In this document: in pieces, positions 11,422 through 55,465 of the stretch
How positions within the stretch are numbered: the first letter of the stretch is position 1
Layout of the letters: each line of letters opens with the position of its first letter
Assembly: GCF_001307195.1 (NCBI RefSeq)
Contig: NZ_CP012808.1
Coordinates: 1,984,001 to 2,048,000 of the forward strand
Length of the DNA stretch: 64,000 bases
Source of the DNA: Acinetobacter equi
GTDB taxonomy: Bacteria > Pseudomonadota > Gammaproteobacteria > Pseudomonadales > Moraxellaceae
Direction of reading: 5' to 3'
The notes under the pieces: generated by a model
Database searches by the model: none
The model's input: the letters and a program-made list of their open reading frames with translations, nothing else
Told to the model about the DNA's origin: nothing
Position numbers and translations under genes: made by a program

Positions 11422-11455
11422 TGGGATTAGCGGAATTATAATTTTTTAGCAACAG

Positions 11456-36323: not shown

Positions 36324-38867
36324 ATGAAAGATAAACAAAACTTAATGAAATTGAATCCGTTAGCAGTATCGGTTCTTATGGCTCTTCCTGTTGTTGCAAG
36401 TGCAGCAGATATTAGCATTTCTAATGGTAGTATCAGCACAGCAAATGGCGTGCCTGTTATTAATATTAATCAAGCTAACGGTAACGGTATTTCTCACAAT
36501 ATTTATGATCGTTTAAATGTTGGTCGAGAAGGTGTAGTTTTTAATAACAGCCAAAATGGTGCAAACTCTGTTTTAGCTGGTCAAATTGCAGGTAATAGCA
36601 ATTTAGCATCTGGTACTGCAAATGTTATTTTGAATGAAGTAACTTCACGTAATGCAAGTACTTTAAACGGTATGATGGAAGTAGCTGGCGATAAAGCTCA
36701 GCTCATCATTGCTAACCCAAATGGTATTACTTGTAATGATTGTGGTTTTATCAATAGTGATAAAGTAACGCTTACAACTGGTTCACCAAGCATGGTAAAT
36801 GGTGAGTTACAAGGATTCTCTGTTAGTGGTGGAACAATTACGACTAATGGTTTAACAAGTGACTCTCCAACTGCAATTTTAGCGCGTTCAATTGTTGTAA
36901 ATGGTGAAATTCGTACAACAAATAACAGCGACTTAACTTTAATTGCTGGTAATAATGTTATTGATAATGATAATAATATTACTGGCACAGTGCGTGCAAC
37001 TGGTAGCCGTAATACTTATGCAATTGATGTTGCTCGTTTAGGCGGTATGTATGCGAATAAAATCAATTTAGTCAGCACGGAAAATGGTGTTGGTGTACGT
37101 AACTTAGGTGTAATTGCTGCAGGTCAAGAAGGCTTACAAATTACATCTAATGGGCGCTTATTAAACAGTAATGCTCAAATGTTATCTGCAGGTGCAATTG
37201 GTATTAAAACTAATGGTGCTCTAGAGAATACAACTGGTCAAATTGCTGGTATTGGTGATATTTCAATAGATACGACTAAAGGTGCTATTACAAATACACG
37301 TGCTGGTAATATTTCATCAGCTTCAAATGTATTTGTTAATAGTGGTCGTGTAGACAATACAAACGGTAAAATTGCAGCAACAGGTATGGTTGCAATTAAT
37401 ACGAATAATACTGAGTTAACAAACTCAGGTAAGGGTAATACAGTTGGTATTGAGGCTGGTATTGTTGCATTAGAAACGGGTACTTTGAATAACCGTAATG
37501 GTCAAATTCAAGGTGGTTATATTGGTGCACAATCAACGAATGTAAACAATAATGGCGGTATGATTCAATCTGCTGGTGATATTGATATCTCAAGCACAAA
37601 TAATATTGATAATACAAGCGGTTTAATTCGTAGTGGTAATGGTCAAATTCGTTTAGCAGCAGCAAATCGAATCACAAACCGTAATACTCGTACTGCTGAT
37701 ACTACAGGTAATGATGCACTTGGTATCATTTCTACTAAGCAAGGTGTTCAATTGTCTGCTGCGACTGTTGATAACTCAAATGGTCAAGTATCAACAACTG
37801 GTACGGTTGGAATTCAAGCGACTACTGTAAATAATAGTAGTGGTCAAATCCAAACTGAATCAAATGTGGCAATTAAAGCTGGTACAGTAAATAACAGTCA
37901 ATCTAGTATTACTGGTAAAACAGGCGTTGATATTGAATTAACAGGTGATTTAACAAATTCACTTGCATTTATTTCGGCTGAAGAAGGAACAATTAATGTT
38001 CAAGCACGTAATATTGCCAATACTGGTGGTGTTATGGTTGCTGAAAATATTAGCCTAAATGCAACAAATAATGTAAATAACGCTCCTGGTCTTATTGCGG
38101 CAACTGAGAAATTAACAGTAAATGCTGGTAATACAGTAACAAATACAAATTCTGATAACTTTGGAAGTCGTTACGGTGCTTATCTAGGTATGGGACAGCA
38201 ACCTGGTGGCATGATTGGTAATGCTGGTGTTGAAATTAATGCTCGTACGTTAAATAACAATAGCAGTCGTATTGTTGCTGAAAATGGTACTTTAAATTTA
38301 ACTGCGACAGGTACATTCAGTAATGATCGTAGCTTATTAGTTGCGGGTGTTGGTGAGTCAACTATTACTGCGAATTCATTAAGTAGTAACTACTCTACAA
38401 TCTATTCAGCAGGTGATTTAGCTATTAACGCTGGTAGCATGTCGTTATATTCTAGTGGTTCATTAATTGATAATAATGCTACAGGTATTGTTGCAGCTGA
38501 TGGCTCATTAGCAATTAATGTTGCTGGTAACTTCACAAACTATGGTTGGATTACTGGGCAAGAAAGCGTAACAGTTAACTCAACTCGTGCTTTACAAAAC
38601 CGCGGTACTATTTATTCTCAAAATGAAACAACTGTATCAGGAACTACAAGTGTAACGAATAATGGCGACATTGTTGGTGACGCAAAAGTAACTGTAACTT
38701 CAAATGGTACTATTGCTAACGCTGGAAACATGTTCAGCGAAGGTCAAGCAGATATCAACGGTAACCGAGTACAAAATACAAATCGTAATGCTGTATTAGG
38801 TGGTCGTCAAGGTCTTGAACTTCACGGTAATACTGTAACTGGTAACGGTTCAGTAATTGGACTGTAA
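36324..38867 (+). CDS. Short FHA-type two-partner secretion exoprotein (TpsA)
   Basis: 847 aa. Signal peptide to about VVASA (residue 27). The TPS domain (about 28-260) includes GVPVININQANGNGISHN, YDRLNVGREGVVFNN and the diagnostic ANPNGITCNDCGFIN with its Cys pair. From about 270 to the end there are FHA-like ~20-residue beta-helix repeats (xNTxGxIxAxGxxxIxT patterns), ending simply at GNGSVIGL. It is much shorter than FhaB or CdiA and has no pretoxin motif or C-terminal toxin, so a structural or adhesive exoprotein is likely. tpsB follows after a hairpin. First gene of the ~19-kb operon. Confidence 0.9.
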   Translation: MKDKQNLMKLNPLAVSVLMALPVVASAADISISNGSISTANGVPVININQANGNGISHNIYDRLNVGREGVVFNNSQNGANSVLAGQIAGNSNLASGTANVILNEVTSRNASTLNGMMEVAGDKAQLIIANPNGITCNDCGFINSDKVTLTTGSPSMVNGELQGFSVSGGTITTNGLTSDSPTAILARSIVVNGEIRTTNNSDLTLIAGNNVIDNDNNITGTVRATGSRNTYAIDVARLGGMYANKINLVSTENGVGVRNLGVIAAGQEGLQITSNGRLLNSNAQMLSAGAIGIKTNGALENTTGQIAGIGDISIDTTKGAITNTRAGNISSASNVFVNSGRVDNTNGKIAATGMVAINTNNTELTNSGKGNTVGIEAGIVALETGTLNNRNGQIQGGYIGAQSTNVNNNGGMIQSAGDIDISSTNNIDNTSGLIRSGNGQIRLAAANRITNRNTRTADTTGNDALGIISTKQGVQLSAATVDNSNGQVSTTGTVGIQATTVNNSSGQIQTESNVAIKAGTVNNSQSSITGKTGVDIELTGDLTNSLAFISAEEGTINVQARNIANTGGVMVAENISLNATNNVNNAPGLIAATEKLTVNAGNTVTNTNSDNFGSRYGAYLGMGQQPGGMIGNAGVEINARTLNNNSSRIVAENGTLNLTATGTFSNDRSLLVAGVGESTITANSLSSNYSTIYSAGDLAINAGSMSLYSSGSLIDNNATGIVAADGSLAINVAGNFTNYGWITGQESVTVNSTRALQNRGTIYSQNETTVSGTTSVTNNGDIVGDAKVTVTSNGTIANAGNMFSEGQADINGNRVQNTNRNAVLGGRQGLELHGNTVTGNGSVIGL

Positions 38868-38883
38868 TTAACGATGTTTGAGG

Positions 38884-38905
38884 GCAGTAGCAGCAATGCT
38901 ACTGC
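38884..38905 (+). terminator. Intercistronic hairpin between tpsA and tpsB
   Basis: A 9-bp perfect stem, GCAGTAGCA (38884-38892) with TGCTACTGC (38897-38905), and a GCAA tetraloop, 16 bases after the tpsA stop. No T run follows, so it more likely sets the tpsA:downstream mRNA ratio by 3'-end stabilisation or partial attenuation than acts as a full terminator. Confidence 0.55.
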
Positions 38906-38926
38906 TCTTATTCAGAGCTAAATGTT

Positions 38927-40579
38927 ATGAAAAGCACAATTAAACCATTGTTGATACTTTTGTCATTAGGTGCAGCAAAGCAAACACTTGCTGACTTTGA
39001 TCCAAATAGACTTGCGAAAGCTCAACAAGAATTAGATAAGAATATTCGACAAGAAAGTAAACTCGATAAAAAAGATGTTTATTCGGAGGTTGAGGCATTC
39101 AAAATCAATAATATTGAATTTCCTGTTGAGGAAGAATGTTTTGATTTTGAAGAATTAATTCTTAATGATGATTTTTTAAATGATCGTAATATTAAAAAGA
39201 TTAAAGCAGATGTAGCAGGTCGTTGTTTAGGGTCTCAAGGTATATCTAAGCTTGCAAGTACTTTGCAGGATTATTATATCAATTCTGGATATGTCACAAC
39301 TCGAATTGAGATTCCAGAACAAGACCTATTGACAAAAAAAATAACATTGGTTGTTCTTCCAGGTCGAATCGAAGAAATTATTATAGAAGATAATGATGTA
39401 CGCGATTGGATTTTGCCATTTAAAGTCGGTCAAATTTTAAATGTAAGAGATCTTGAACAAGGTTTGGAAACCTTGCAGAAAGTTCCAGGTCTGAATGTGA
39501 AAATTAATATTGCACCAGGTCAAAACAATGGTTTTAGCAATGTTGTGATTAATACAGGTCGAACTAAAAATTGGAACGTACGGACATGGGCAAATAACTG
39601 GGGTGATGAAGGTACTGGTAAAAATCTAATCGGTGCTGCTGCTTATGCATATAACTTAACTAAAATGAATGATGTGTTATATGTGTCAGGCACAACAAAT
39701 GCTGAGCGAGAAGATGGTGGATATGACAGTGTTAGTGCCTATTACTCATTGCCATATGGTTATTGGGATTTGGAAGCATTTTATAGCAAAAGTAAAACAA
39801 AGCAGCCAATTAATCTTGGAACATTAAACTTTAATTATTTTGGTGATACAGAATATTCGAGCTTAAAGGCATCTCGCACTATTTATCGAGATGTAGATAA
39901 AAAAATCACACTTAGTAGTGAAATCACACGTAGAAAAGTTACGAATAGTCTTGAAGATATTGAATTAGTTTTACAAAAACGAGATATGACTAATCTGCGT
40001 TTTGGAGTCAATTTAAAGAAAAATCTGACGGGTGCATTTTTAGATACAACCTTGTCATATCAGCGCTTTGTTCCATGGTTAGGAGCGGTGGAAACACCTG
40101 ATATGCAATCTGGTGATGTAAGTAAACAAAGTCATGTTTTTAACTTTGATGCTGATTATACGAAAGCAATGAAAGTTGCTAAATATGATGGTTATTACAA
40201 TCTACGTGTAGGTGCACAATATGCACCAAGCCCACTGACTTTACAGGATCGACTGACTGTTGGTGATCGTTGGAGTGTTCGTGGATTTGAAAACAGTGCT
40301 GGCTTAGATGGCGACAAAGGTTTTTATGCACAAAATACGATCAATGTAATGACGGGTGTGCGGAATCTCGAGTGGTTCTTTGGTACGGACTACGGTGTAA
40401 TTTTCAAAGATGATGAATTACATAAAAGAGATAAACATTTATTGGGTGCAACAACAGGGTTTAGAGGAAGCTTTAAGTCATTAGGTTATGGTTTTTCTGT
40501 ATCAAAACCGTTGAGGTATCCGCAAGCAATGACTCCAGATGAGTTTAGCTTTAATTTCAATTTTTATTATCAACTATAA
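38927..40579 (+). CDS. Two-partner secretion outer-membrane transporter (TpsB)
   Basis: 550 aa. Signal peptide (cleavage near LADF), a linker with Cys-containing EECFDFEELIL, then POTRA domains (about 60-200; ISKLASTLQDYYINSGYVTTR is the POTRA_2 signature) and a 16-strand-type barrel to the C-terminal FNFYYQL. The SVRGFENSAGLDGDKGFY segment near residue 450 carries the VRG[YF] motif of the Omp85/TpsB lid loop. It exports the TpsA encoded just upstream. The acpS ATG follows after 16 bases, which ties secretion to the acyl-biosynthesis genes. Confidence 0.92.
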   Translation: MKSTIKPLLILLSLGAAKQTLADFDPNRLAKAQQELDKNIRQESKLDKKDVYSEVEAFKINNIEFPVEEECFDFEELILNDDFLNDRNIKKIKADVAGRCLGSQGISKLASTLQDYYINSGYVTTRIEIPEQDLLTKKITLVVLPGRIEEIIIEDNDVRDWILPFKVGQILNVRDLEQGLETLQKVPGLNVKINIAPGQNNGFSNVVINTGRTKNWNVRTWANNWGDEGTGKNLIGAAAYAYNLTKMNDVLYVSGTTNAEREDGGYDSVSAYYSLPYGYWDLEAFYSKSKTKQPINLGTLNFNYFGDTEYSSLKASRTIYRDVDKKITLSSEITRRKVTNSLEDIELVLQKRDMTNLRFGVNLKKNLTGAFLDTTLSYQRFVPWLGAVETPDMQSGDVSKQSHVFNFDADYTKAMKVAKYDGYYNLRVGAQYAPSPLTLQDRLTVGDRWSVRGFENSAGLDGDKGFYAQNTINVMTGVRNLEWFFGTDYGVIFKDDELHKRDKHLLGATTGFRGSFKSLGYGFSVSKPLRYPQAMTPDEFSFNFNFYYQL

Positions 40580-40595
40580 AAACTGGGTAATAGTT

Positions 40596-40964
40596 ATGTT
40601 TGTTGGGACAGATATAGTTGAAATTGAACGTATTAAAACAGCAATTTTACGTTCAGGAGAAACATTCTTAAAGAGAATGTTGACCGATACTGAAATATTA
40701 AAAGTTGGTGACGAAGAACTAGACTTCGAAAGAATCTCTGGTTTTTGGGCGGCAAAAGAATCAATTGTAAAAGCAATTGGTTTAGGTTTTAGAGATGGAA
40801 TTTTATTTCACGATGCTGAAATTATTCATAATGAATATGGCGCTCCATCATTTTTATTACATGGGCGCTTAAAAGAGATTCTTGATCAAAAAGGAATTTC
40901 AAAAATTTCATTAAGTATTTCGCACTGTCGGACGCATGCAGTTGCGGTCACAATAATGGCTTAA
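40596..40964 (+). CDS. AcpS-type holo-ACP synthase (phosphopantetheinyl transferase)
   Basis: 122 aa from the ATG at 40596; the open frame extends into tpsB, but MFVGTDIVEIERIK is the normal AcpS start. The Mg/CoA-binding motifs GTDIVEIERI and FWAAKESIVKAIGLGF are intact. It transfers phosphopantetheine from CoA to the ACP serine. A housekeeping acpS normally sits beside pdxJ/era, so this copy is probably dedicated to the ACP at 42317. Confidence 0.88.
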   Translation: MFVGTDIVEIERIKTAILRSGETFLKRMLTDTEILKVGDEELDFERISGFWAAKESIVKAIGLGFRDGILFHDAEIIHNEYGAPSFLLHGRLKEILDQKGISKISLSISHCRTHAVAVTIMA

Positions 40965-40988
40965 TTATTAATTAATTGAAGAATATTT

Positions 40989-41744
40989 ATGTATAAATAC
41001 AATGATTTGGTAAATAAAAATGTTTTGGTCACTGGTGCAAGTGGCGACATTGGTTTGGGAATTTGTGCGGCATATTTAGAGCAAGAATGTCATGTTTATG
41101 CACTCTATAAGTCAAACTCATCAGATTTACAGCAACTAAAAGAGACACATCTTAATGGTAAAAATTTGGACATCATTCAATGTGATATTTCTGATAAAGA
41201 ATCATTAGCACAACTTGCTAAATATTTAGAAGAAAAAGCACAAAAGCTTGATGTTCTTGTAAATAATGCTGGAATTGTACGTGATAGTTTATTTTCGGCA
41301 ATGAGTTGTGAAGATTTTAATGCTGTTATTGATACAAATTTATTGAGCACATTTGCAATTACCAAAGAAGTTTTACTTTTATTAAGAGCAGCTGAAAGTG
41401 CTGCGATTGTAAATGTTGCTTCTATTGCAGCAATTGTTCCAAGTGTTGGACAAACAAATTATAGCGCGTCAAAAGGTGCATTACTTGCATTTACAAGAAC
41501 GCTTGCTGCTGAACTAGCACCAAGAGGTGTACGTGTAAACGCAGTAGCTCCTGGAATGATCGAATCAAAAATGGTGAAAAAGGTGTCACGCACAGTTGTA
41601 CGTGACGTACTTTCTTCTATTCCATTAAAACGCTTAGGTAAATGTGAAGAAGTTGCAAATACGATTGTGTATTTAAGCTCATCAGCTTCTAGCTATATCG
41701 TTGGTCAAACCATCGTAATTGATGGTGGCATGGTGATGAGGTAA
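40989..41744 (+). CDS. Ketoreductase, FabG-like short-chain dehydrogenase
   Basis: 251 aa. Rossmann glycine motif TGASGDIG (about 17-24), NNAG near 90, catalytic Ser in NVASIAAI, Tyr158 and Lys162 in YSASK, and the C-terminal YIVGQTIVIDGG. It reduces beta-ketoacyl-ACP with NADPH. It starts 24 bases after acpS, and the dehydratase begins two bases after its stop. A pathway-dedicated reductase rather than housekeeping FabG, judging by the neighbours. Confidence 0.9.
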   Translation: MYKYNDLVNKNVLVTGASGDIGLGICAAYLEQECHVYALYKSNSSDLQQLKETHLNGKNLDIIQCDISDKESLAQLAKYLEEKAQKLDVLVNNAGIVRDSLFSAMSCEDFNAVIDTNLLSTFAITKEVLLLLRAAESAAIVNVASIAAIVPSVGQTNYSASKGALLAFTRTLAAELAPRGVRVNAVAPGMIESKMVKKVSRTVVRDVLSSIPLKRLGKCEEVANTIVYLSSSASSYIVGQTIVIDGGMVMR

Positions 41745-41746
41745 GT

Positions 41747-42301
41747 ATGTCTAAATATTCTATTCCTTCAAGAGTCTTTTTAGAGATGGGGGGTTGGAGA
41801 CAACCACTCGTAATGGTAGACCGCATTGACGATTATAAATATGGCGAAAATGGTTATATCAAAGTCGTTAAGCATGTGACTTATAACGAACCATATATGG
41901 TTGGTCATTTCCCTGAAGATCCAATTATGCCAGGTGCATTGATCTCAGAAATCTTTGGTCAAGCCAGTGAATATTTATCTTTCTTAACTGATGTATGTGA
42001 TATCTACCAAGAAGCCCATCAGCATGAAATGCGTTCTTTACGTGATATTCATGAAAAAATTACAACAGAAGAAATGCGTTCAATTATCCGCACTAGACGT
42101 TCTCAAGTACGCGGTGTGTTAGCTTCACAAAATTTAAAATTTAAAGAAATTGCTTGGCCAGGCGATACGATTGAAGTCGTAAGTAAACTTTCATTTTCAG
42201 ATAGTCATGGCTTTAAACATTATGCAGTAACAGCACATGTTGGCAAAAAACTCATTAGCCAAGGTGTAATTATTAACTTTCGCGATGTAAAACAATCTTA
42301 A
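41747..42301 (+). CDS. Hotdog-fold beta-hydroxyacyl-ACP dehydratase (FabZ/FabA-like)
   Basis: 184 aa. Conserved PLVMVDRIDDY, then GHFPEDPIMPGALISEIFGQ with catalytic His near 53 and Glu near 68, both present as in FabZ. The C-terminal third (about 120-184) completes the hotdog. It removes water from beta-hydroxyacyl-ACP to leave a double bond. The operon holds no enoyl reductase, so products could stay unsaturated unless housekeeping FabI acts. Confidence 0.88.
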   Translation: MSKYSIPSRVFLEMGGWRQPLVMVDRIDDYKYGENGYIKVVKHVTYNEPYMVGHFPEDPIMPGALISEIFGQASEYLSFLTDVCDIYQEAHQHEMRSLRDIHEKITTEEMRSIIRTRRSQVRGVLASQNLKFKEIAWPGDTIEVVSKLSFSDSHGFKHYAVTAHVGKKLISQGVIINFRDVKQS

Positions 42302-42316
42302 GTACGGAGAAAAATA

Positions 42317-42601
42317 ATGAGTACGATGCAAGAAAATATTGATGAACGTAAAGACGTTTTATTTACGATTAAAACAGAAATTATTCAGCGTTTACATATT
42401 CAAAAAAATGAAGCGCAAATTGATGATGATACTGCATTATTTGGTAATGGTTTAAAACTAGATTCGGTTGATGCAACTGAAATTATGGTGCTTTTAGATA
42501 AAGTTTTTGGCATCAAAGTAAGTGAAAGTGATGATCCTTCATATATGCGAAGCATCAATAACTTGGCATCTTTTGTAATTAATAAACGTAAAAAATCTTA
42601 A
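42317..42601 (+). CDS. Acyl carrier protein
   Basis: 94 aa, acidic and helical, with the phosphopantetheine site at Ser50 in LKLDSVDATE (usual DSLD/DSLE). It carries the growing chain. It lies 15 bases after the dehydratase and is presumably activated by the AcpS encoded at 40596. It is longer than housekeeping AcpP (about 78 aa), mainly through N- and C-terminal extensions. Confidence 0.9.
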   Translation: MSTMQENIDERKDVLFTIKTEIIQRLHIQKNEAQIDDDTALFGNGLKLDSVDATEIMVLLDKVFGIKVSESDDPSYMRSINNLASFVINKRKKS

Positions 42602-42633
42602 TTTTAAACAATAACTTAAATAGGGCTATAAAA

Positions 42634-43797
42634 ATGAGCGCTCTCAATAATATTCATATTAAAAATAATGCAAAAATGGGTGTTTTTAATGGTAAAGAAG
42701 TGCCTGCTTCTTATCATGATTCAAATGTAGTTTATAAAGCAGTACGTGAAAATGCAGTACTTGTTGACTACTCTCATATGTCAATTGTCAGTGTTGTTGG
42801 TGAAGATGCTTGGTCATTAATGAACTATATGGCATCTGCTGATATTTCTATCATTCGTGATGAACAAGGCATTTATACACTTATTTTGAATGAGGATGGT
42901 TCAATTTGGGGCGATGCCTACATTTTATGTACCGAAGATGGTTACTATATTCTTTCAGAAACACTTTCAGCTGAAGCAATTATTGAACGTTTAAATCAAA
43001 TTTTAGCTGATCACAGTGATGACTTAGATATCCAAGAAAATCCTGAAATTAGTTCAATGGAAAGCGCTGATTGGGGTGCAATTCTTTTAGAAGGTCCTTA
43101 TTCATGGGAACTGTTATCTGAAATTTATGGTTTCGATATAATTGGATTACCATACCATGAATATATGAATACGGATGATGGTTTATTAACATTCCGCTGT
43201 GGTAAACATGGTGAATTTGCTTATTTAGTCGTTGGTGAAAAAGAACAACTGGCACAAGTATGGGAACAATTACTTGAAAAAGGTGATAAATATCAATTAA
43301 AGACTGGCGGTCTAGATTATCAAGATGTGATTCGTGTTGAAAATCCATGTTGGGATGAATCTGTTTATCAAAATTATTCACGTAATCCTGTTGAATTACA
43401 GTTACAGTGGGCTATTCAATACGATAAAGAAGGCTTTACTGGTAAAGATGAAATTGAAGCAATTTCTGAAGCAGGCGCAGCTCGAAAATTATTGGGTATT
43501 AAACCAGTAGCTGAATGTGCTGGTATTGCACCAGATGATAAAGTCTTAGTTGATGGTGCTGAAGTTGGTACTATTGTGAAAAGTGTTTATTCACCTGCAA
43601 GCCAATCGTATATCGCACTTGCATTAATTAATAGTGATTATGCATGGTCAGATATTGAAGGCTTCCATATAAAAACAAGTCAAGGCGAAGTTGCAGCAAA
43701 AACGCATAACCTTCCATTCCTTTATAACTTCAGTATGTTGGTAAATCCAACAGAGCATAGTTATGTCGATGCTTCGAAGCCAAAAAGCGCTTTGTAA
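42634..43797 (+). CDS. GcvT-like (folate-binding aminomethyltransferase family) protein
   Basis: 387 aa. The layout is that of glycine-cleavage T-protein and relatives (DmdA, YgfZ). The first domain has AVLVDYSHMSIVSVVGEDAW and NEDGSIWGDAYIL, with an Asp at the folate-site position; a C-terminal barrel follows (FTGKDEIEAI and a late segment with EVGTIVKSVYSP). No gcvH or gcvP lies nearby, so it is not the glycine-cleavage enzyme in context. Possible roles are folate-dependent one-carbon transfer or demethylation of the acyl product or its head group. Its place between ACP and the ketosynthase suggests that it acts in the same pathway. Confidence 0.75.
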   Translation: MSALNNIHIKNNAKMGVFNGKEVPASYHDSNVVYKAVRENAVLVDYSHMSIVSVVGEDAWSLMNYMASADISIIRDEQGIYTLILNEDGSIWGDAYILCTEDGYYILSETLSAEAIIERLNQILADHSDDLDIQENPEISSMESADWGAILLEGPYSWELLSEIYGFDIIGLPYHEYMNTDDGLLTFRCGKHGEFAYLVVGEKEQLAQVWEQLLEKGDKYQLKTGGLDYQDVIRVENPCWDESVYQNYSRNPVELQLQWAIQYDKEGFTGKDEIEAISEAGAARKLLGIKPVAECAGIAPDDKVLVDGAEVGTIVKSVYSPASQSYIALALINSDYAWSDIEGFHIKTSQGEVAAKTHNLPFLYNFSMLVNPTEHSYVDASKPKSAL

Positions 43798-43876
43798 TTA
43801 AAAATTGAAGATTTAAAGCAGAGAAAAGGGTAAGCATTTAACAATAGCGTTAAGAAAAAAAATTACTGGAAAAGCA

Positions 43877-46432: not shown

Positions 46433-46436
46433 TATT

Positions 46437-47672: not shown

Positions 47673-48655
47673 TGTATTTATCTTCATTTGCAATGACTGA
47701 ACCACAAGATAAAATTCATTTATATTATCCGTGCTGGCTAAACGTGTGGGAATCTCATATGTATAACTTAGCGCTTAAATCCACTAAATCACATGCTTGG
47801 GGATTTAAACGTTTCGGTACCAGTATTGATGGTTATACGCGTGAAATGATCCGAACACCGCGTTATAAAGATTATATTGATGCGATGGAACAAGCTTCAG
47901 ATTTAGCTTTACAACAACTTTCTGCGAAACAACGTATGCAGTTATTTAAATCGCGTACAGCATTTATTTATGTAGATAGTTGGGGGGAGTCTGGTCCTTT
48001 TGAAAATATTTCGAGTGCATTACATACAGCAATTATTGATACTTTACCGAAAAATCTAGTAAAAAAATTCTCAGTGAAAGATTTCACTTGTAAAATTCGT
48101 GGTGAAAAACAATCTTTAGTTCAAGCAATGAAAGTTGCTGAAGATTATTTAAATTGGGATCTTTTTGACTATGTTGTGATTTGTGCAGCATATAGAGCAA
48201 TACCTGTGCTGGTATTTTCTGAGGAAGATATTGGTGTAAATAAGAAAGAAAAAAAACGTTCAGATGATTTTAAAATGAATTTATCTGTTGAGCGTGTAGG
48301 GTGTTTTATTTTTAGTCGACAAGAAAGCCCAATAAAAGTTAAGTGTGGGCACTATGTAATACCTGAAGATGATCAACAGTTATTGACCGACATTATAGAA
48401 AAAGAATCAGATATTAATGTATTTGCTTTTTCTGGAATGAGAAAAATGGCTTCTGAGCAAACATTGCTAAAAAATGAAAATAACTCGCCATTTAAAGCAA
48501 TTAATCTTACAGATAAATATGGCAATAGTGGATGCCTTTCACCTGCATTGAGCTGGATTTATCTAGAACAGCAAGCAAGCGATTATGGAAAAATGAGAAC
48601 AATTGTTCCAGATAACTTTGGTGGTTATAGCTGGTTTGATACTTGGTATTCATAA
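47669..48655 (+). CDS. Divergent thiolase-fold (KS-like) protein, no catalytic residues seen
   Basis: 328 aa, overlapping the previous gene by four bases. I find no direct family match. YVVICAAYRAIPVLVFSEED followed by SVERVGCFIFSR resembles the KS core beta-strand and the 'EGA..lvLE' region. KYGNSGCLSPALSWIYLE looks like a degraded GHxxGAxGxxxL helix. No Cys-His-His set is visible. The most economical reading is a third, catalytically dead ketosynthase-like subunit. Alternatively it is an unrelated partner of the synthase. Confidence 0.55.
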   Translation: MMYLSSFAMTEPQDKIHLYYPCWLNVWESHMYNLALKSTKSHAWGFKRFGTSIDGYTREMIRTPRYKDYIDAMEQASDLALQQLSAKQRMQLFKSRTAFIYVDSWGESGPFENISSALHTAIIDTLPKNLVKKFSVKDFTCKIRGEKQSLVQAMKVAEDYLNWDLFDYVVICAAYRAIPVLVFSEEDIGVNKKEKKRSDDFKMNLSVERVGCFIFSRQESPIKVKCGHYVIPEDDQQLLTDIIEKESDINVFAFSGMRKMASEQTLLKNENNSPFKAINLTDKYGNSGCLSPALSWIYLEQQASDYGKMRTIVPDNFGGYSWFDTWYS

Positions 48656-48674
48656 ATAAGTGCAGGAATAGAAA

Positions 48675-49382
48675 ATGGCAAATCTAATTAAAGAACTACC
48701 AGCCATCCTATTGATTGATATTTTCAAAAGTTATGGTGCAGGAGAAAACAGAGTTGATGCGCTTAAAAATATCAATTTAGAAATTAAAAAAGGTGAGTTT
48801 CTTGCTTTATGTGGTCCATCAGGTAGTGGGAAAAGTACTTTATTAAATATTTTATCGGGTATTGATCGACCAACATTTGGTACAACACTATTTTTAGATA
48901 AAGCATTGAATAATTTAGATGAAAATCAGCTTTCTTTGATTCGTAGTAAACATCTTGGTTTTATCTTTCAGTTTTTTAATTTAATTCCAGTTTTAAGTGC
49001 TTTTGATAATGTTTATTATCCATTGATTTTAAATGAAAATTATTCAAAAAAAGCAGCAAGTGAATTGGCTCTACATTATTTAGAGCGTGTCGGATTATAT
49101 GAATTACGTGATCGAAAACCAGGTCAATTGTCTGGTGGACAACAACAACGTGTCGCAATTGCAAGAGCTTTGGCAAATAACCCAGAAATTGTTGTCGCAG
49201 ACGAACCAACAGGAAATCTTGATTTAGCAACGGGTGAAGCAATTTTAGATCTGTTAATGCAAATTAATCAGGATATTGGAACGACATTTATTATTTCAAC
49301 GCATTCAACTCAATTAAAGGATAGAGCGAATCGTGTTATAGAAATCAAAGATGGAGAGTTAGTCAGTGACTCCGCTATATAA
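48675..49382 (+). CDS. LolD/MacB-type ABC transporter ATPase
   Basis: 235 aa. Walker [10 protein letters not shown] (47-55), Q-loop [18 protein letters not shown], signature [15 protein letters not shown], Walker [14 protein letters not shown]-loop STHS. This subfamily pairs with FtsX-fold permeases (LolCE, MacB, FtsX) that do mechanical work in the periplasm rather than pump through the membrane. The FtsX-like permease is two genes downstream. Lies in the operon 19 bases after the KS-like gene. Confidence 0.92.
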
Positions 49383-50007
49383 AAATATATTATTTTGGGG
49401 AATGGGTTTATTTATTTCTATCCAAAGTAATGCAACTCCAGTACAAGTTGAAAATATTGTTAAACAAGGTTTTTCAAATAATACAGATAAGTTACTTATA
49501 ACAAGTCAGGCATTATTTAAAGAATATGAACGCGAAAATAACATTACATCATTAATTTTTTATTCATATGCCATGTTACGTTTGGCGAATAACTATAAAG
49601 CTGTCAATGATTATGTAAATGCATCTGAATATGCAAAATTAGGTTTTTTTTATTTAGATGAAGCTGCTGATTTAAATGAAGATAATTGGCGGGTTCGTTA
49701 TTTGCGAGCAAGAATTGATGCATATGTAGCTGCAGATCTAGGTCGTTGTGTTGTTGCTTTAAATGATACCAATGCTTTATTAAATGAGCGTCAAAAATTT
49801 GATATAGACATCCTTGCTAGAGTGAACCATATGCGTTATCGCGCTTTGGAAAGTTGTAACGATCCGCGAACAAAAGCATTTTTACAGCAAATAAAAAAAG
49901 GGCATCCTACGCAAATTAAACTTTTGGCTTTAGATAAAAATAGTGCGCCTGAGTGGGATGTAAATGAGGTTTCTCAGATTTTAATGCCTTTGATGAAAGG
50001 TGAATAA
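49366..50007 (+). CDS. Periplasmic helical (TPR-like) protein of the export module
   Basis: 213 aa from a GTG inside the 3' end of the ATPase gene (17-base overlap). Signal peptide to about SNA (residue 23), then an all-helical body with TPR-like pairs (LIFYSYAMLRLANNYKAVND, then YAKLGFFYLDEAADL) and two cysteines. It abuts the FtsX-like gene directly. I infer an accessory role in the same transport complex; no known family is recognised. Confidence 0.65.
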   Translation: MTPLYKNILFWGMGLFISIQSNATPVQVENIVKQGFSNNTDKLLITSQALFKEYERENNITSLIFYSYAMLRLANNYKAVNDYVNASEYAKLGFFYLDEAADLNEDNWRVRYLRARIDAYVAADLGRCVVALNDTNALLNERQKFDIDILARVNHMRYRALESCNDPRTKAFLQQIKKGHPTQIKLLALDKNSAPEWDVNEVSQILMPLMKGE

Positions 50008-51321
50008 ATGAATATTGGAATCATACTCACGAGTATTGCGTTACTGGCGATTTTAGGCTTTTTAACCTATAGCATTATCTTTTCTGGAACAGATGCAAAG
50101 TTTGCATTCTTAAATTTATTCAGACATAAGCGCCGTTCATTTTCGACAATTTTTGCCATTATTTTAGGTGGTGTTGCTATTTTTCTTTATGGTGGCTTCA
50201 TTAATTATTCATTTTGGATTTTGAAGCAACAAACAGTACGTACGAATATTGGTCATGTGCAAATTTACGATAAGACTTACTTTGAAACGTCCAATAAAAG
50301 TAAAAGTATTATTCAAGATTATCAAAATTTAAAAGAGAGTATTCTGCAAGATAAAGAATTATCACCTTATATTTCTACAATTTCAGGTCAATTAGAATTT
50401 ACTGGTGTAATTTCACAGTATGAAAATGAAACCTCAAGTTACTTTGCTGCACTTGGTGTCGAGCCATTGGCGGCTTTAAAGTTGGGCTCATTTGATCGAC
50501 TTATTTCAGGTAGTGATTTATCTCGTGTAAAAACAGATGAAATTACAGTGGGTAGTGGTTTAGCAAAAACATTAAATGCTAAATATTCAGACTGGGTCGA
50601 TTTACTTTTGGTGAATAGCCAAGGTGGTCAAGGTGCTTTATCGCTTAAAGTGCGTGGTATTTTTTCTTCAGGAATTAAAGATTACGACGATACCGCAATC
50701 AAAATGCCTTTAGGAACAGCGCAACAATTAATGGATACCAGTGGTGTTAGTAAAATCGTAATTTTATTAAAAGATGACCATGATCTGGATGTTTTTACCA
50801 CAAAATTAGAAAAATTTATTTCAACACAAAAGCAACCATTAATGATTAAAGACTGGAAAACATTATCAATCTTTTATCAACAAGTAGAAGGTATGTTATC
50901 TGGAATTTACTTCTTCATTAAGGTGATTGTGGCATTAATTGTTATTTTCATGATTAGCAATTCTATGCGTATGAATGTCATGGAAAGAACACGTGAAATT
51001 ACCACATTAAGAGCAATTGGATTACGACCTACTCATGTAACAAGACTGTTTTTGTTGGAAGGGATCTTTATTGGTGTTATTGGTGCAGTGGGCAGTTTAG
51101 TTATCGGTTTTGCTTTAGCTGGAATTATTAATCTGCAAGGCATTACGATGCCACCATCACCAGGTCAAACAGAAGGCTATACCGCATTTATTCAAACACA
51201 TAGTTTTGATTTGATTTGGATTACATTGGTTTTACCAATTTTGACAGCATCTCTTGCTTCAATTTTACCTGCAATAAGTGCATCTAAATTGAATATTGCT
51301 GATGCTTTTAAATCAGTTTAG
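50008..51321 (+). CDS. FtsX-fold ABC permease (LolC/E-like)
   Basis: 437 aa. An extra hydrophobic N-terminal segment (about 5-26) precedes the usual TM1 (about 47-70, after the FAFLNLFRHKRRS amphipathic loop). Then come a large periplasmic MacB-PCD domain (about 70-300) and three C-terminal TMs (about 303-328, 350-378, 398-425), with the cytoplasmic coupling helix MERTREITTLRAIGL. Works with the ATPase at 48675. In LolCDE this pair lifts lipoproteins from the inner membrane to LolA, and a LolA-like gene follows here. Confidence 0.9.
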   Translation: MNIGIILTSIALLAILGFLTYSIIFSGTDAKFAFLNLFRHKRRSFSTIFAIILGGVAIFLYGGFINYSFWILKQQTVRTNIGHVQIYDKTYFETSNKSKSIIQDYQNLKESILQDKELSPYISTISGQLEFTGVISQYENETSSYFAALGVEPLAALKLGSFDRLISGSDLSRVKTDEITVGSGLAKTLNAKYSDWVDLLLVNSQGGQGALSLKVRGIFSSGIKDYDDTAIKMPLGTAQQLMDTSGVSKIVILLKDDHDLDVFTTKLEKFISTQKQPLMIKDWKTLSIFYQQVEGMLSGIYFFIKVIVALIVIFMISNSMRMNVMERTREITTLRAIGLRPTHVTRLFLLEGIFIGVIGAVGSLVIGFALAGIINLQGITMPPSPGQTEGYTAFIQTHSFDLIWITLVLPILTASLASILPAISASKLNIADAFKSV

Positions 51322-51331
51322 GAAAAATCAT

Positions 51332-52114
51332 ATGAAAGTTTATGCTTCATTATCATTGCTCTCAGTTTTGTTAATTCCAACACTGAGTTGGTCAAATGCA
51401 TCGCAACCAAATGCAACTGAAATTATTCGTAAGGCAGATGATATTCGATCTCCGAATAAACCATTTCGTTATACAGTGACAATTTCAGAATTTAAATCTG
51501 GTTCAACGAAAGCTGTAAATAAACAAATTCTTGATGTTTCAATGCGTTTTTTAAAACCGGAGGGTAATAATCAAGCTGATGCAAAATCTTTGGTTAGATT
51601 TGTATATCCTGCTAAGGATAAGGGCAAAATCATGTTGTCCGATTGGTATGATTTATGGTTTTACACACCTGAGTTAAGACGCCCGATCCCAATTTCACGT
51701 CAACAGCGTTTATTAGGACAAATTTCAAATGGTGATGTGATTGTAACCAATTTTGAATATTCTTATAACGCTAAAGTTGTGGATGAGCAAACATGTGGCA
51801 ATAAAACATGTTATCGCTTGGCATTACAACGTAAGTCACCCGAAGTAACTTGGCCAAAAGTAACTTATTTAGTTGAAAAGGGAACTTATAGACCTTTTAA
51901 AGCTTCATATTTGTCCCAAGATGATAAAATCATGAAAGAAGTGACTTACCATGAATATAAGCAATTACTTGGTCGTGAGCGTCCTTCAAAAATTATTGTG
52001 AAAGATACGAGACAAGGCAATGGCTATTCAGTCATGGAATACAGTGATTTAAAATTTGAATCGCTTCCTGTTTCTAATTTTACAAAAGAATATATACAGA
52101 GAAGGGCAAAGTAA
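51332..52114 (+). CDS. LolA-like periplasmic lipid carrier (outer-membrane lipoprotein-sorting family)
   Basis: 260 aa from the ATG at 51332, with AGGAAA upstream and 10 bases after the permease stop. Signal peptide to about SWSNA. The mature part matches the LolA_like family (pfam17131 type): FRYTVTISEFKSGS, LVRFVYPAKDKGKIMLSDWYDLWFYTP, RQQRLLGQISNGDV and NFTKEYIQR. The half-open beta barrel of this fold binds acyl chains. Such proteins often sit beside FtsX or MMPL transporters. Presumed carrier for the operon's product, or a lipoprotein, from inner to outer membrane. Confidence 0.88.
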   Translation: MKVYASLSLLSVLLIPTLSWSNASQPNATEIIRKADDIRSPNKPFRYTVTISEFKSGSTKAVNKQILDVSMRFLKPEGNNQADAKSLVRFVYPAKDKGKIMLSDWYDLWFYTPELRRPIPISRQQRLLGQISNGDVIVTNFEYSYNAKVVDEQTCGNKTCYRLALQRKSPEVTWPKVTYLVEKGTYRPFKASYLSQDDKIMKEVTYHEYKQLLGRERPSKIIVKDTRQGNGYSVMEYSDLKFESLPVSNFTKEYIQRRAK

Positions 52115-53481
52115 TGTTGCCCTATCGCTGGCTTGCACTTTCTACTATTCTGTTTCCTACAGAAAAAGCCATTTCGTGTGTATTTGATGCTGACATAGAA
52201 TTATATGGACAAGTATCTTATGTACATAAAAAAGCATCATCTTGGGAAATAGGTGGGGAAGATCCTTATAGCTCAGATAATAGTTACAATGATGTTGCAC
52301 TTAAATATCAGAACCGCTGTGAATTAATAGAAAATAAACTGAATTTAAATATTAATGCTTATGGTTTAGCTTATTCATCTTACAAAGATACGGGTAATTT
52401 TGAACAAGATAATCAACATGTTAAATTATTATTGAATCAGTTTAGTCTTTCTTATCAACTCTCTGATACTTTAAGTCTAGATACAGGAAAACTCAAAAAT
52501 AATGATGGTTTATTCTATTTAAAGTCTCCTACAGCGTTATTAAATAACTATTATGCAGGCTTTAAGCCAACTCGTATTCATGATTCGGCAATGGATCAAA
52601 TTTATTCAGAGTCATTTTGGGGAATCTCACTTACCCAAGATACTGAAGATTATTCTTTGGCAATAACTGTTGCACCTAAATTAACAGAGATCGATGAAAG
52701 ATATGTCTCTTCTAGTAATTGGTCTTCTCTGGAGCGGTCGAATAGTCGTGAGCGATATTTATTTAGATATACCGATTACCATTTTAAAGATCATACACCT
52801 ACGGTAAGTTTAGGTTTAGGTGATGCAGTATCTATTGCATTTTCAAATAGTTATAATATCACTCAGCAATTAACTATGAATGCTGAAATTGCTTGGCATA
52901 ATAAACAGCAATGGCACCATTTAAATCGAGAGAATGCTCAGTTAGTTCAGAATTATTTATTTCCAAATGATTTATATCAAATTAAGAAAAAAGATGGTTT
53001 TGAAATTGCTTTAGGTATGCAATACACCTCAGATCGATTCAGCCAATTTGGTTTTGAATATTATTATCAAAGTGAGGGTTACTCTAAACAGCAATGGAAT
53101 GAGCAAAAGAATTTAATTCAGTTTTTAAATCGAACAACAAATTTTGAACCATTAGATAGTGCATTTGATTCATATAAATATTTAATGGCTTCCGAAATCT
53201 ATAACACATCAAGTCAAGGTAATTTGACAGGAAAACATTACATCAACAGTTATGCCAGCATTTTAATGGCAGATCAATCAACAATTAAACCCTATGTTGT
53301 CATGAATTTAGTAGATAAAAGTACTGTTTCAGGAATTACTTATACAAAACCATTCAATATAAGAACACAACAAGTAGATATTTATACAGGTATTTATGCC
53401 GCATTGGGTCGCAATGATTCTGAATTTGGTCTGTTTGGTGAAACTGTAGGAACTTACGTCGGTTTTAACTATCATTTTTAA
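52114..53481 (+). CDS. Outer-membrane beta-barrel protein
   Basis: 455 aa, starting with TAATG overlap on the LolA-like stop. Short signal (to about AIS). The mature part shows alternating polar/hydrophobic strands with aromatic girdles and ends in Phe (VGFNYHF), the C-terminal outer-membrane signature. No OM family is clearly recognisable; the overall look is similar to proteins paired with LolA_like/FtsX modules (DUF1302-type porins). Likely the outer-membrane end of the export route. Confidence 0.75.
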   Translation: MLPYRWLALSTILFPTEKAISCVFDADIELYGQVSYVHKKASSWEIGGEDPYSSDNSYNDVALKYQNRCELIENKLNLNINAYGLAYSSYKDTGNFEQDNQHVKLLLNQFSLSYQLSDTLSLDTGKLKNNDGLFYLKSPTALLNNYYAGFKPTRIHDSAMDQIYSESFWGISLTQDTEDYSLAITVAPKLTEIDERYVSSSNWSSLERSNSRERYLFRYTDYHFKDHTPTVSLGLGDAVSIAFSNSYNITQQLTMNAEIAWHNKQQWHHLNRENAQLVQNYLFPNDLYQIKKKDGFEIALGMQYTSDRFSQFGFEYYYQSEGYSKQQWNEQKNLIQFLNRTTNFEPLDSAFDSYKYLMASEIYNTSSQGNLTGKHYINSYASILMADQSTIKPYVVMNLVDKSTVSGITYTKPFNIRTQQVDIYTGIYAALGRNDSEFGLFGETVGTYVGFNYHF

Positions 53482-53491
53482 GGTTATTGTT

Positions 53492-54424
53492 ATGAAAATT
53501 AATCAATTACAACCCACTGCATTTTTATTTGCAGGTCAAGGTAATCCTGTCATTGGAATGGGATCAGATTTATGGGATCTCAATGAGACGACACGTAAAA
53601 TTTGGGATTGTGCGAGTGATATTTCGCAAACAGATATTAGACGCTTATGTTTAAAAGGACCAATGACAAAATTGGTTCAAACGACAAATCAGCAAATTGC
53701 AGTGACGGCAATTAATACCACACTTTATGAATTATGTTTGGAAAAACAAAATTTTGAAAACGTGGTGGGTTTTTGTGGTCATAGTGTTGGTGAATATGCA
53801 GCTTTATATGCAGCGAAAGCAATCACGCTTGAAAATTTATTCAAAATGATTCAATTCCGTGCACAACTCATGAACGATTTAAGCAAGGTGAATAAAGGCT
53901 TAATGTATGCAGTAAAAGGCATTGATTATTCAACATTAGTTCGTTTAATTGAGCAAAGTGGCATAGAAATCGATGTGAGTTGTGATAATAGCCATCAACA
54001 ACAAGTCATTGGTGGAACTTCATCTGCATTATCAGAGTTTTCACGGTTACTTTTAAGTGAAGGATATGAATCTACAAAGCTGGGTGTAAGTGGTGCTTGG
54101 CATACGCGTTTAATGCAAGATGGCGTTCGACAAATGCGAGATTTTTTAGCAACAATAGAAATAAAAAGTCCAGAACATGATGTTTTTATGAATGTGACTG
54201 GTAAGCCTGAAGCAGATCCAAATATGATTAAAGAAAACCTATCTTTACATTTAACTCATACCGTTAAATGGACGAGTTCAATGGAATCTTTAATTCAACA
54301 TCCAACACAACCAGTTTTATTAGAAGTGAGTAATAAAGCTTATTTAGGGCATATGCTAAATGATTTTAAAGGTTTTACACCTGAAAAAACCGTGCATTGT
54401 AGAAATCTTATTGGTGCGATATGA
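53492..54424 (+). CDS. Malonyl-CoA:ACP transacylase-like acyltransferase
   Basis: 310 aa. FLFAGQGNPVIGMGSDLWD at the start; nucleophile in GHSVGE (Ser98; housekeeping FabD has GHSLGE); conserved Arg in IQFRAQLMND; His in SGAWHTRLM near 205. It loads malonyl (or another acyl) onto the ACP. Housekeeping fabD sits with fabG/acpP, so this is a pathway-specific copy. ATGA overlap with the last gene. Confidence 0.88.
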   Translation: MKINQLQPTAFLFAGQGNPVIGMGSDLWDLNETTRKIWDCASDISQTDIRRLCLKGPMTKLVQTTNQQIAVTAINTTLYELCLEKQNFENVVGFCGHSVGEYAALYAAKAITLENLFKMIQFRAQLMNDLSKVNKGLMYAVKGIDYSTLVRLIEQSGIEIDVSCDNSHQQQVIGGTSSALSEFSRLLLSEGYESTKLGVSGAWHTRLMQDGVRQMRDFLATIEIKSPEHDVFMNVTGKPEADPNMIKENLSLHLTHTVKWTSSMESLIQHPTQPVLLEVSNKAYLGHMLNDFKGFTPEKTVHCRNLIGAI

Positions 54425-55425
54425 ATCCGAATTATTTAGATTTTATTCGATTCCAAGATAAAAGAATTATTCCTTTCATCTACGGTATTTTATTTATTGT
54501 TCTTGGATTTTATTGGAAAAATAATAACTATAGTCTGACTCAACAAGATGTATGGATTGTGGGTGGAATACTCGCAATTATGCTTTTTAATTTTATCTAT
54601 GAGTTAAAAGCATATTGGGCTTATAGCTATTTGCTTGGGCGTGTTGATTTTCATGACTTGAAAGAAAGATCATCTTTTTTTGTAGATAAATCAATATTAT
54701 TTAGACCTACAACAGTCAGTGTGTTTTCAGTTTTACTATTCGCACTCATTGTTTATTGTAGCACCATAATAATGCCCCCAATATACAGTACAATCCTTTT
54801 ATATCTGATTGCACCCTTTATTATTTATCTTATTTTAAGATGTTTAAGACCGATTTATATTCAACAATTATTGAATTCTGTTTCTTCAGGAATTCGCTAT
54901 AAAAATCTTTATCATCATGTAATTTATTCTGTTTTATTGATTTTTTTATTGAATATCTTATCCATTAGTCCTTTGGCTAAAAATGCAGATTTTTCTTTAG
55001 CTGATGGATTTTTTTCAGCTCGACTAATTATTGCGATGACTATTTTATGTAGCATAGTTTTGGTGATTAATCTCATATTTTTAAAAGCATCGAAAAGATA
55101 TATTTTTTTAGGAAGAATTTTTTTAAAAGAATTTGATTTTAATTTTCCTGAGCAAATTCCATTTATAAATTTTCATGCAAAACCAATTGTGATTCGGTTA
55201 TTACTTTTATTATTGGTATTATTTGTATGGATTATGTGCGTAAGTACAGTACTTAGTTTTTTACAGTGGTCTGTGATATTTGAAGTTTATTTTATTCTTT
55301 GTTTTTTGCCTTGCCTTGTTTATTATTTTTTACAGACTTATTGGCACTGGCATACTGAGCTAATGATGGCGTGTGATATGTATTTCCGCTATGAGGAAAT
55401 TAAAAAGCGTAAAGAAGCAAATTAA
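54421..55425 (+). CDS. Polytopic membrane protein, last gene of the operon
   Basis: 334 aa with about eight hydrophobic segments (roughly 14-32, 40-60, 98-118, 122-142, 168-186, 200-222, 256-285, 290-312) and basic loops. It overlaps the acyltransferase gene by ATGA. I recognise no family; no MMPL, flippase or O-acyltransferase (MBOAT) motif is visible. It may place the lipid product in the membrane or add its head group. Function not known. Confidence 0.7.
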   Translation: MNPNYLDFIRFQDKRIIPFIYGILFIVLGFYWKNNNYSLTQQDVWIVGGILAIMLFNFIYELKAYWAYSYLLGRVDFHDLKERSSFFVDKSILFRPTTVSVFSVLLFALIVYCSTIIMPPIYSTILLYLIAPFIIYLILRCLRPIYIQQLLNSVSSGIRYKNLYHHVIYSVLLIFLLNILSISPLAKNADFSLADGFFSARLIIAMTILCSIVLVINLIFLKASKRYIFLGRIFLKEFDFNFPEQIPFINFHAKPIVIRLLLLLLVLFVWIMCVSTVLSFLQWSVIFEVYFILCFLPCLVYYFLQTYWHWHTELMMACDMYFRYEEIKKRKEAN

Positions 55426-55434
55426 AATAATACT

Positions 55435-55465
55435 AAAAAAAGAGCCTGTTTTCAGGCTCTTTTTT
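55435..55465. terminator. Bidirectional terminator ending the ~19-kb operon
   Basis: A stem of at least 13 bp (55435-55448 with 55453-55465), loop TTTT, with A run before and T run after. It also follows the convergent rnhA-dnaQ gene. It is the first strong terminator seen after 36324. Confidence 0.93.

What the first reader, a model, noticed from the sequence alone, without database searches (positions are those of the whole stretch)
36324..55425. One 16-gene operon joins two-partner secretion, a type II fatty-acid/polyketide synthase and a Lol-like export machine
Seen: 16 same-strand genes, gaps from -17 to 79 bases, several ATGA/TAATG overlaps, and one strong terminator at 55435. Known: TpsA/TpsB, AcpS/KR/DH/ACP/KS-CLF/MAT and LolD/FtsX/LolA-like are each familiar modules, but I know no described system that combines all three. 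Inferred: a dedicated acyl or polyene product is made in the cytoplasm and carried to the outer membrane by the Lol-like set. There it either modifies or anchors the exoprotein, or forms a surface lipid co-expressed with it. This is my main candidate for an undescribed system.
Basis: partly seen in the sequence, partly recalled or inferred. Interest (0 to 1): 0.9.

Follow-up and report, generated by a model that had tools for sequence, protein, structure and literature searches.

The report
Polyene-type lipid operon with surface protein
A 17-gene block in an Acinetobacter genome appears to build a polyene-like lipid, ship it to the cell surface and co-produce a secreted surface protein; the same block, function unknown, sits in some E. 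coli and other gut and plant bacteria, and a leftover of it survives in laboratory E. coli.

Summary
The operon is real: 17 (not 16) co-directional genes, 36324-55425, gaps -17 to 79, no plus-strand terminator-like site between tpsB and acpS. It is not undescribed as sequence: E. [quoted passage not shown] I found no paper that tested its product. My reading: a type II PKS (KS-CLF fusion, KR, DH, ACP, MAT, AcpS, GcvT-like; no recognised enoyl reductase) with the gene kinds of Gram-positive cyl/granadaene operons but no recognised CylE or glycosyltransferase, wired to an ABC/LolA-like/outer-membrane line. Its site is empty in 55 of 56 other Acinetobacter genomes compared. K-12 ymdE-ycdU is its stump.

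The parts
36324..38867 (+). tpsA, 847 aa, TPS domain plus haemagglutinin repeats, short, no further domain found
   Evidence: Pfam PF05860 E 4.3e-40, PF05594; length, Cys and tail compared in 28 TpsA rows
38927..40579 (+). tpsB, 550 aa, POTRA plus ShlB/FhaC barrel family
   Evidence: PF03865 E 1.8e-72, PF08479, PF17287; only TpsB found at E<=1e-40 in the own genome
40596..40964 (+). acpS, holo-ACP synthase, 122 aa
   Evidence: PF01648, TIGR00516 above cut-off
40989..41744 (+). ketoreductase (SDR), 251 aa
   Evidence: best-scoring NCBIfam models are FabG, the top ones below their cut-offs; YxxxK in 49 of 49 orthologues scanned
41747..42301 (+). FabZ-like dehydratase, 184 aa
   Evidence: PF07977 E 3.5e-15; strict GHFP..PG pattern in 39 of 49
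42317..42601 (+). acyl carrier protein, 94 aa
   Evidence: PF00550; DSx pattern 49 of 49
42634..43797 (+). GcvT-like aminomethyltransferase-family protein, 387 aa (counterpart in kind of CylF)
   Evidence: PF01571 E 1.1e-38, below the GcvT equivalog cut-off; own clade in tree
43877..46432 (+). fused ketosynthase-CLF-like protein, 851 aa; N half keeps C162, H294, H330, C half lacks the active Cys (Gln here; matched by eye)
46437..47672 (+). third KS-like protein, 411 aa; Ser161 at the active-Cys position (matched by eye), second His lost, S161, H294 and K324 invariant in 19 sequences
47669..48655 (+). 328-aa protein of unknown family, possibly a degenerate thiolase fold
   Evidence: no Pfam/NCBIfam match at E<=0.01; hhalign to the 411-aa family E 0.00097, probability 22%
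48675..49382 (+). LolD-like ABC ATPase, 235 aa
   Evidence: PF00005; TIGR02211 233.8 bits against cut-off 307.75; Walker A pattern in 44 of 47 orthologues
49366..50007 (+). 213-aa protein with an N-terminal hydrophobic stretch, probably periplasmic, family unknown
   Evidence: no Pfam; 20-sequence alignment; no credible solved relative
50008..51321 (+). LolC/E-like FtsX permease, 437 aa
   Evidence: PF02687, PF12704; TIGR02212 107.3 bits against cut-off 362.45
51332..52114 (+). LolA-like periplasmic carrier, 260 aa (ATG at 51332; the listed ORF starts at TTG 51296)
   Evidence: PF17131 E 3.7e-39; solved relative 3buu E 1.9e-35
52114..53481 (+). 455-aa exported protein, probable outer-membrane barrel (inferred from a signal-peptide-like start and the C-terminal aromatic)
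   Evidence: 18-sequence alignment; no Pfam, no solved relative
53492..54424 (+). malonyl-CoA:ACP transacylase, 310 aa
   Evidence: PF00698 E 1.6e-26; GHSxGE 47 of 47
54421..55425 (+). inner-membrane protein, homologue of E. coli YcdU at the same operon position, 334 aa
   Evidence: 40% identical to annotated ycdU of L017; no solved relative
55436..55465 (.). 13-pair hairpin with T-run, terminator-like, at the operon end

Best explanation
One horizontally spread operon makes and displays a polyene-type acyl lipid. AcpS activates the ACP and the MAT loads malonate. The KS-CLF fusion extends the chain while KR and DH reduce and dehydrate each unit; no enoyl reductase is recognised, so the chain should stay conjugated (inferred). 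The GcvT-like protein and the KS-like 411-aa and 328-aa proteins are thought to tailor or release it (inferred, weak). The LolD-like ATPase and the single FtsX-type permease lift the product out of the inner membrane, the LolA-like protein carries it across the periplasm, and the 455-aa protein receives it at the outer membrane (inferred from families). TpsB exports TpsA, a short surface protein of its own subfamily, as a co-displayed partner. Shown: gene content, conserved order, catalytic motifs kept in most genes, block inheritance, a clean insertion site, a core that exists without tpsAB, recurrent TpsA adjacency. Inferred: product, direction of transport, any contact of TpsA with the lipid.
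For: Families and cut-offs. Catalytic patterns: KR 49 of 49, ACP 49 of 49, MAT 47 of 47, KS 50 of 51, GcvT KHGE-type 47 of 49, LolD Walker A 44 of 47, DH 39 of 49; KS C-H-H invariant in 13 fused proteins including two Gram-positive ones. Same gene kinds as cyl operons (PMC6985545 section 7) and as a Priestia plasmid cluster PPTase-MAT-KR-ACP-DH-GcvT-KSKS. 17-gene order on two enterobacterial plasmids, one flanked on both sides by the same IS6 transposase. E. coli counts. Flank genes adjacent in 55 of 56 other genomes. TpsA-bearing classes A and C are sisters in the KS tree, SH-aLRT 98. Erwinia TpsA downstream in 3 of 3. Operon-linked TpsAs fall in one TPS-domain clade, 95/91, together with three unlinked Serratia ones. 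Two orphan TpsA paralogues, one TpsB.
Against: No gene recognised as CylE, which PMC6985545 calls universal in cyl operons, and no glycosyltransferase, so the release step and head group are unknown. GcvT and KS trees keep the operon proteins apart from the Gram-positive ones, so common descent is not shown. The core lacks upstream tpsAB in 22 of 29 divergent loci, and 12 of 15 downstream stretches read show no TpsA either. Divergent loci carry a second SDR that might be an enoyl reductase. Two Kosakonia loci have tpsB but no tpsA. Morganellaceae lack TpsB, LolA-like and OMP genes, and three of their LolD-like genes (L041, L045, L059) miss the Walker A pattern. TpsA-KSKS distance correlation is weak (0.30 over 23 loci) beside OMP-KSKS 0.85. 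The strict DH pattern fails in 10 of 49.
Confidence: 0.55

Rival explanations
1. The PKS-export block and tpsAB are merely co-regulated neighbours: the lipid does one thing and TpsA, an ordinary adhesin, another.
For: Core without upstream tpsAB in 22 of 29 divergent loci, no TpsA in 12 of 15 downstream stretches; tpsB without tpsA in two Kosakonia loci; weak TpsA-KSKS distance correlation 0.30.
Against: Near-equal counts in E. coli; tpsB-acpS gap 4-23 bases in 20 of 21 loci, 357 in the other, where the start may be misplaced; TpsA beside the core in three arrangements and in one TPS clade.
Confidence: 0.3
2. It is an aryl polyene (APE) cluster variant, as antiSMASH labelled part of the O157 copy.
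For: PMC9205054 passages; shared KR/DH/KS/ACP logic and a LolA-like gene.
Against: No acyl-ACP ligase and no RND/MMPL exporter recognised among the 17 genes, both listed for the E. coli APE cluster in PMC8253772. The same genome has a separate KS cluster with an aromatic amino-acid lyase, whose two KS proteins fall outside the operon clade.
Confidence: 0.12
3. The pathway makes an acyl group that acylates TpsA or another envelope protein.
For: Shared operon; a KS-like protein with invariant Ser, His and Lys that could be an acyltransferase (speculation).
Against: No recognised protein acyltransferase; Lys content of TpsA varies from 15 to 67 and several TpsAs have no Cys.
Confidence: 0.08

Closest known systems
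E. coli O157:H7 O-island 47 / S-loop 71 operon, ECs_1282-ECs_1298 (s1-ST11)
   Same: All 17 genes, same order; 66-69% DNA identity over KSKS in the listed E. coli rows.
   Different: TpsA longer in E. coli (about 1270 aa); different chromosomal site; function not tested in what I read.
cyl operon / granadaene (Streptococcus agalactiae and other Gram-positives)
   Same: ACP, KR, DH, MAT, KS, PPTase/AcpS, aminomethyltransferase (CylF in kind) and an ABC ATPase (PMC6985545).
   Different: No recognised CylE, CylX or glycosyltransferase; extra KS-like and 328-aa proteins, FtsX-type permease, LolA-like, OMP, TpsAB.
Aryl polyene clusters (ape)
   Same: Type II polyene logic, LolA-like chaperone (PMC8253772 passages).
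   Different: No recognised ligase or RND/MMPL exporter; MAT, GcvT-like and fused KS-CLF instead.
LolCDE-LolA lipoprotein sorting
   Same: LolD-like ATPase, LolC/E-like permease, LolA-superfamily carrier.
   Different: One permease, ATPase and permease below the curated Lol cut-offs, PF17131 carrier, no LolB recognised.

Membership tests
O157 O-island 47-type operon | Same genes in the same order | tested here: met
cyl / granadaene operon | KS, KR, DH, ACP, MAT, AcpS, aminomethyltransferase present | tested here: met
   list from PMC6985545
cyl / granadaene operon | CylE acyltransferase, called universal | tested here: inconclusive
   No gene recognised as such by Pfam or NCBIfam; no CylE sequence or model was searched, so I do not file the operon as cyl
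cyl / granadaene operon | CylF and KS of common descent with the operon's | tested here: inconclusive
   Operon GcvT and KS each one clade apart from the Gram-positive fused-KS neighbours; unrooted for GcvT; no protein named CylF or CylI was obtained
Aryl polyene cluster | Starter ligase and RND/MMPL exporter | tested here: not met
   Not recognised among the 17 genes; features from PMC8253772
Type Vb two-partner secretion | TpsA with TPS domain, TpsB with POTRA and ShlB-type barrel family | tested here: met
LolCDE lipoprotein exporter | Scores above LolD and LolC/E equivalog cut-offs | tested here: not met
   233.8 against 307.75; 107.3 against 362.45
Polyene producer | Conjugated product | not testable with these tools
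   Needs chemistry

The most novel reading that the evidence does not exclude
A Gram-negative counterpart of the granadaene system: a non-aryl polyene lipid made by a cyl-like synthase, moved to the outer surface by a dedicated ABC-LolA-like-barrel line, and working together with its own subfamily of short TpsA proteins (including orphan paralogues that share the one TpsB), so that lipid and exoprotein form one surface device.
Probability: 0.22. Interest if true: 0.82.

Novelty: new variant of a known kind. Interest (0 to 1): 0.6.

Why it matters
A gene block annotated in a well-studied E. coli lineage for about two decades, and whose stump (ymdE-ycdU) is in K-12, gets a concrete testable reading: a polyene-type surface lipid. 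If right, it would show how a Gram-negative moves such a lipid across two membranes, and whether a two-partner exoprotein and a lipid can be one functional unit. It also ties an uncharacterised K-12 gene, linked in print to bovine mastitis strains, to a pathway.

Tried and rejected
PDB profile searches gave no credible relative for the 328-aa, 334-aa, 455-aa or 213-aa families. A DNA invertase upstream of the Rahnella sikkimica copy was considered as a phase switch; among the loci held only one other, Rahnella laticis, has it, so rejected as general. Upstream DNA of the two Acinetobacter copies shows clear similarity, by eye, only near the start codon. No phage record matched the 328-aa protein. 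GC of the operon is close to that of its flanks in each of six copies (0.34 in both Acinetobacter, 0.52 in Rahnella), so composition does not support a recent transfer from enterobacteria. Two patterns of mine were badly drawn and are not used: the KS3 one (11 of 49) and the TpsA C-terminal one (no row matched). The link of O-island 47 to cyl operons is in no paper that I opened or saw listed by my ten searches, which cover open-licence PMC only and list at most 20 papers each. Passages in PMC1890555, PMC2907692, PMC3893438 and PMC3064760 added nothing on function. Perna 2001 on O-islands is recalled, not seen.
Full report
What is there. Window 36324-55425 is a run of 17 same-strand genes: tpsA, tpsB, acpS, KR, DH, ACP, a GcvT-like gene, an 851-aa KS-CLF fusion (KSKS), a 411-aa KS-like gene, a 328-aa gene (U328), a LolD-like ATPase, a 213-aa gene, an FtsX/LolC-E-like permease, a LolA-like gene, a 455-aa exported protein (OMP), a MAT and a membrane protein homologous to E. 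coli YcdU. Gaps run from -17 to 79 bases. tpsB ends at 40579 and acpS starts at 40596; the terminator scan shows no plus-strand site there, and a strong hairpin stands at 55436-55465.

Enzymes. Pfam and NCBIfam assign AcpS, SDR ketoreductase, FabZ-like dehydratase, ACP, GCV_T, double ketoacyl synthase, MAT, TPS and ShlB families. Catalytic patterns are mostly kept: KR 49 of 49, ACP 49 of 49, MAT 47 of 47, KS 50 of 51, GcvT-like 47 of 49, LolD Walker A 44 of 47 and DH (a strict pattern) 39 of 49, counted over the window and those of the 51 loci whose gene covered at least 80% of the query and had no X. In the fusion the first half keeps Cys162, His294 and His330, invariant in 13 aligned fused proteins; the second half lacks the Cys, with Gln in the window and other residues elsewhere (the halves were matched by eye). 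The 411-aa protein has Ser161 at the Cys position and has lost the second His (by eye). The 328-aa protein has no family match; profile comparison to the 411-aa family gives E 0.00097 but only 22% probability and to the fusion family nothing useful, so a degenerate thiolase fold is a suspicion. No gene is recognised as an enoyl reductase, which is why I expect double bonds to stay; that is inference from polyene pathway logic. Divergent loci carry an extra SDR between FtsX and LolA-like whose role is unknown.

Export. The ATPase and permease look like LolD and LolC/E but fall well below the curated cut-offs (233.8 of 307.75 and 107.3 of 362.45 bits). The carrier is PF17131 with a solved relative, 3buu, E 1.9e-35. 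The 455-aa protein has a signal-peptide-like start and an aromatic or hydrophobic C-terminus like outer-membrane barrels, with no solved relative. So the set may work like a Lol line but is not a LolCDE member.

Where else. In 175 Acinetobacter genomes only this one and G111 match the 328-aa protein at E<=0.001; G111's contig C28 has the length and gene position of Acinetobacter sp. ANC 4558. The 17-gene order is on an IncFII Enterobacter bugandensis plasmid, flanked on both sides by the same IS6 transposase protein, on a Rahnella sikkimica plasmid with a broken KSKS frame, and in E. coli. In E. coli the KSKS gene is in 370 of 5426 complete genomes (369 at >=80% cover), tpsAB at >=80% in 367 and GcvT-to-LolA in 368; the sets were not intersected. 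O157 Sakai ECs_1282-ECs_1298 is the same block.

What print says (passages only unless said). [quoted passage not shown] PMC8565820 gives OI-47 as z1528-z1556, a 31.7-kb island, so the operon is part of it; in the passages I saw it treats GrvA only. PMC2323221 and PMC2749873 place ECs1282 in S-loop 71 / OI 47. PMC1635569 lists ECs1282-1289 as hemagglutinin/hemolysin-like, activator and acyl genes that may make additional lipids. PMC9205054 names the cluster s1-ST11, reports an aryl polyene biosynthetic gene in it by antiSMASH and cites induction on spinach roots. PMC4940412, cited there for the S-loops, held none of my terms. PMC6985545 (passages and section 7) found cyl genes in Gram-positives and a chloroflexus and calls CylE universal. 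I saw no paper joining OI-47 to cyl; the ten paper searches are named in Tried and rejected.

Core without tpsAB. A scan of named genomes gave 51 loci (two short peptide patterns were used, so this is a sample). By KSKS identity 22 are close (class A) and 29 divergent. Class A: tpsB 21 of 22, tpsA 19 of 22; L033 is cut by its contig end, while L035 and L040 (Kosakonia) have tpsB and no tpsA in the 5 kb before it. Divergent: tpsB 0 of 29; tpsA upstream in 3 of 29 (Proteus, Providencia, Morganella, here class C; these lack TpsB, LolA-like and OMP genes, as does a P. mirabilis record); LolA-like and OMP in 22 of 29, none of which has tpsAB upstream. The seven without LolA-like are those three, L041 (contig end) and L058, L060, L067.

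TpsA nonetheless recurs. In 17 divergent genomes searched, 16 have some TpsA at E<=0.001, mostly far from the operon. The three Erwinia ones carry a TpsA (open frames of 741-754 aa) 0.6-1.2 kb downstream of YcdU on the same strand; downstream stretches of 15 of the 17 were read and the other 12 showed none (Pfam of one Erwinia TpsA). In a TPS-domain tree of 44 rows, 12 class A, 3 Morganellaceae, 3 Erwinia-adjacent and 3 unlinked Serratia TpsAs form one side of a branch (95/91), apart from 23 other rows; two Erwinia rows appear under duplicate names as 'nonlinked', and some of the 23 are two pieces of one gene. The A-C join inside it is weak (87/55). In the KS tree A and C are sisters (SH-aLRT 98). 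Distance correlations in class A: tpsA-KSKS 0.30, tpsB-KSKS 0.63, tpsA-tpsB 0.66, LolD-KSKS 0.72, U328-KSKS 0.53, OMP-KSKS 0.85, tpsA-U328 0.73, tpsA-OMP 0.39, none reached by shuffled labels (300 tries each). The own genome has two further TpsAs, 1020 and 740 aa, at C1 about 2.63 Mb with no TpsB beside them, and a single TpsB at E<=1e-40. Among 173 Acinetobacter genomes 39 have a TpsA match at E<=1e-40, but outside G000 and G111 identity is at most 45% and most frames are far longer.

Insertion. The two genes that flank the operon were found on one contig and strand in 57 of 59 genomes, the window's own included: they lie within 300 bases of each other in 55, 797 apart in one, and 19,968 apart in the window. 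Operon GC is near the host's, so the entry is not recent or came from a genome of like composition.

K-12 stump. MG1655 keeps ymdE (pseudogene) and ycdU between an IS3 element and serX; they match the last 357 bases of the MAT plus all of ycdU of an intact E. coli copy at 98.6%. Of 5426 E. coli genomes 2651 hold some piece of MAT+ycdU, one listed row only 46 bases, and 375 hold >=80%. PMC4951805 (passages) reports ymdE and ycdU in 98.5% of mastitis strains against 79.9% and 82.0% of phylogroup A.

Comparison with cyl. The Priestia plasmid cluster and Gram-positive fused KS proteins, among them ones from Thermosporothrix and Paenisporosarcina, genera that PMC6985545 lists, share the fused KS and, in Priestia, the GcvT neighbour. 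Trees keep operon KS and GcvT as separate clades, and the Gram-positive KS group itself has only 69% support; common descent is open. It works like a cyl pathway in gene kinds; it is not filed as one because no CylE is recognised and descent is not shown.

Verdict. A real, mobile, conserved operon of known sequence type and untested function; most likely a non-aryl polyene-type lipid synthesis and display system with a dedicated TpsA partner.

Noticed in passing
L134:6301-9363 and 9934-12156 (own genome C1 about 2.63 Mb): Two orphan TpsA paralogues (1020 and 740 aa) with near-identical starts and a tail like the operon TpsA, no TpsB beside them.
   Followed up: partly
L073:11545-12830 (E. coli K-12): ymdE-ycdU is the 3' stump of this operon, between IS3 and serX.
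   Followed up: yes
L013:3495-26405 (Enterobacter bugandensis plasmid): The operon lies between two copies of the same IS6 transposase gene, a composite-transposon-like layout.
   Followed up: no
L076:1-13000 (own genome C1 about 1.36 Mb): A second polyketide-like cluster with an aromatic amino-acid lyase, a flavoprotein and at least two KS genes, possibly an aryl polyene type.
   Followed up: partly
L058, L060, L067: Distant PKS relatives in which no Lol-type genes were found; L060 and L067 carry a second KS-KS fusion, L058 an acyltransferase PF01757.
   Followed up: no
L012:5243-5794 and L024:1239-1787: A tyrosine-type DNA invertase upstream of two Rahnella copies; possible phase switch there.
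   Followed up: partly
window:34001-36000: Very AT-rich stretch (GC 0.234) before tpsA, including about 820 bases without a listed long gene.
   Followed up: partly
L011 and L015 records: Two 'plasmid' records of over 4 Mb are probably chromosomes labelled as plasmids in the collection.
   Followed up: no
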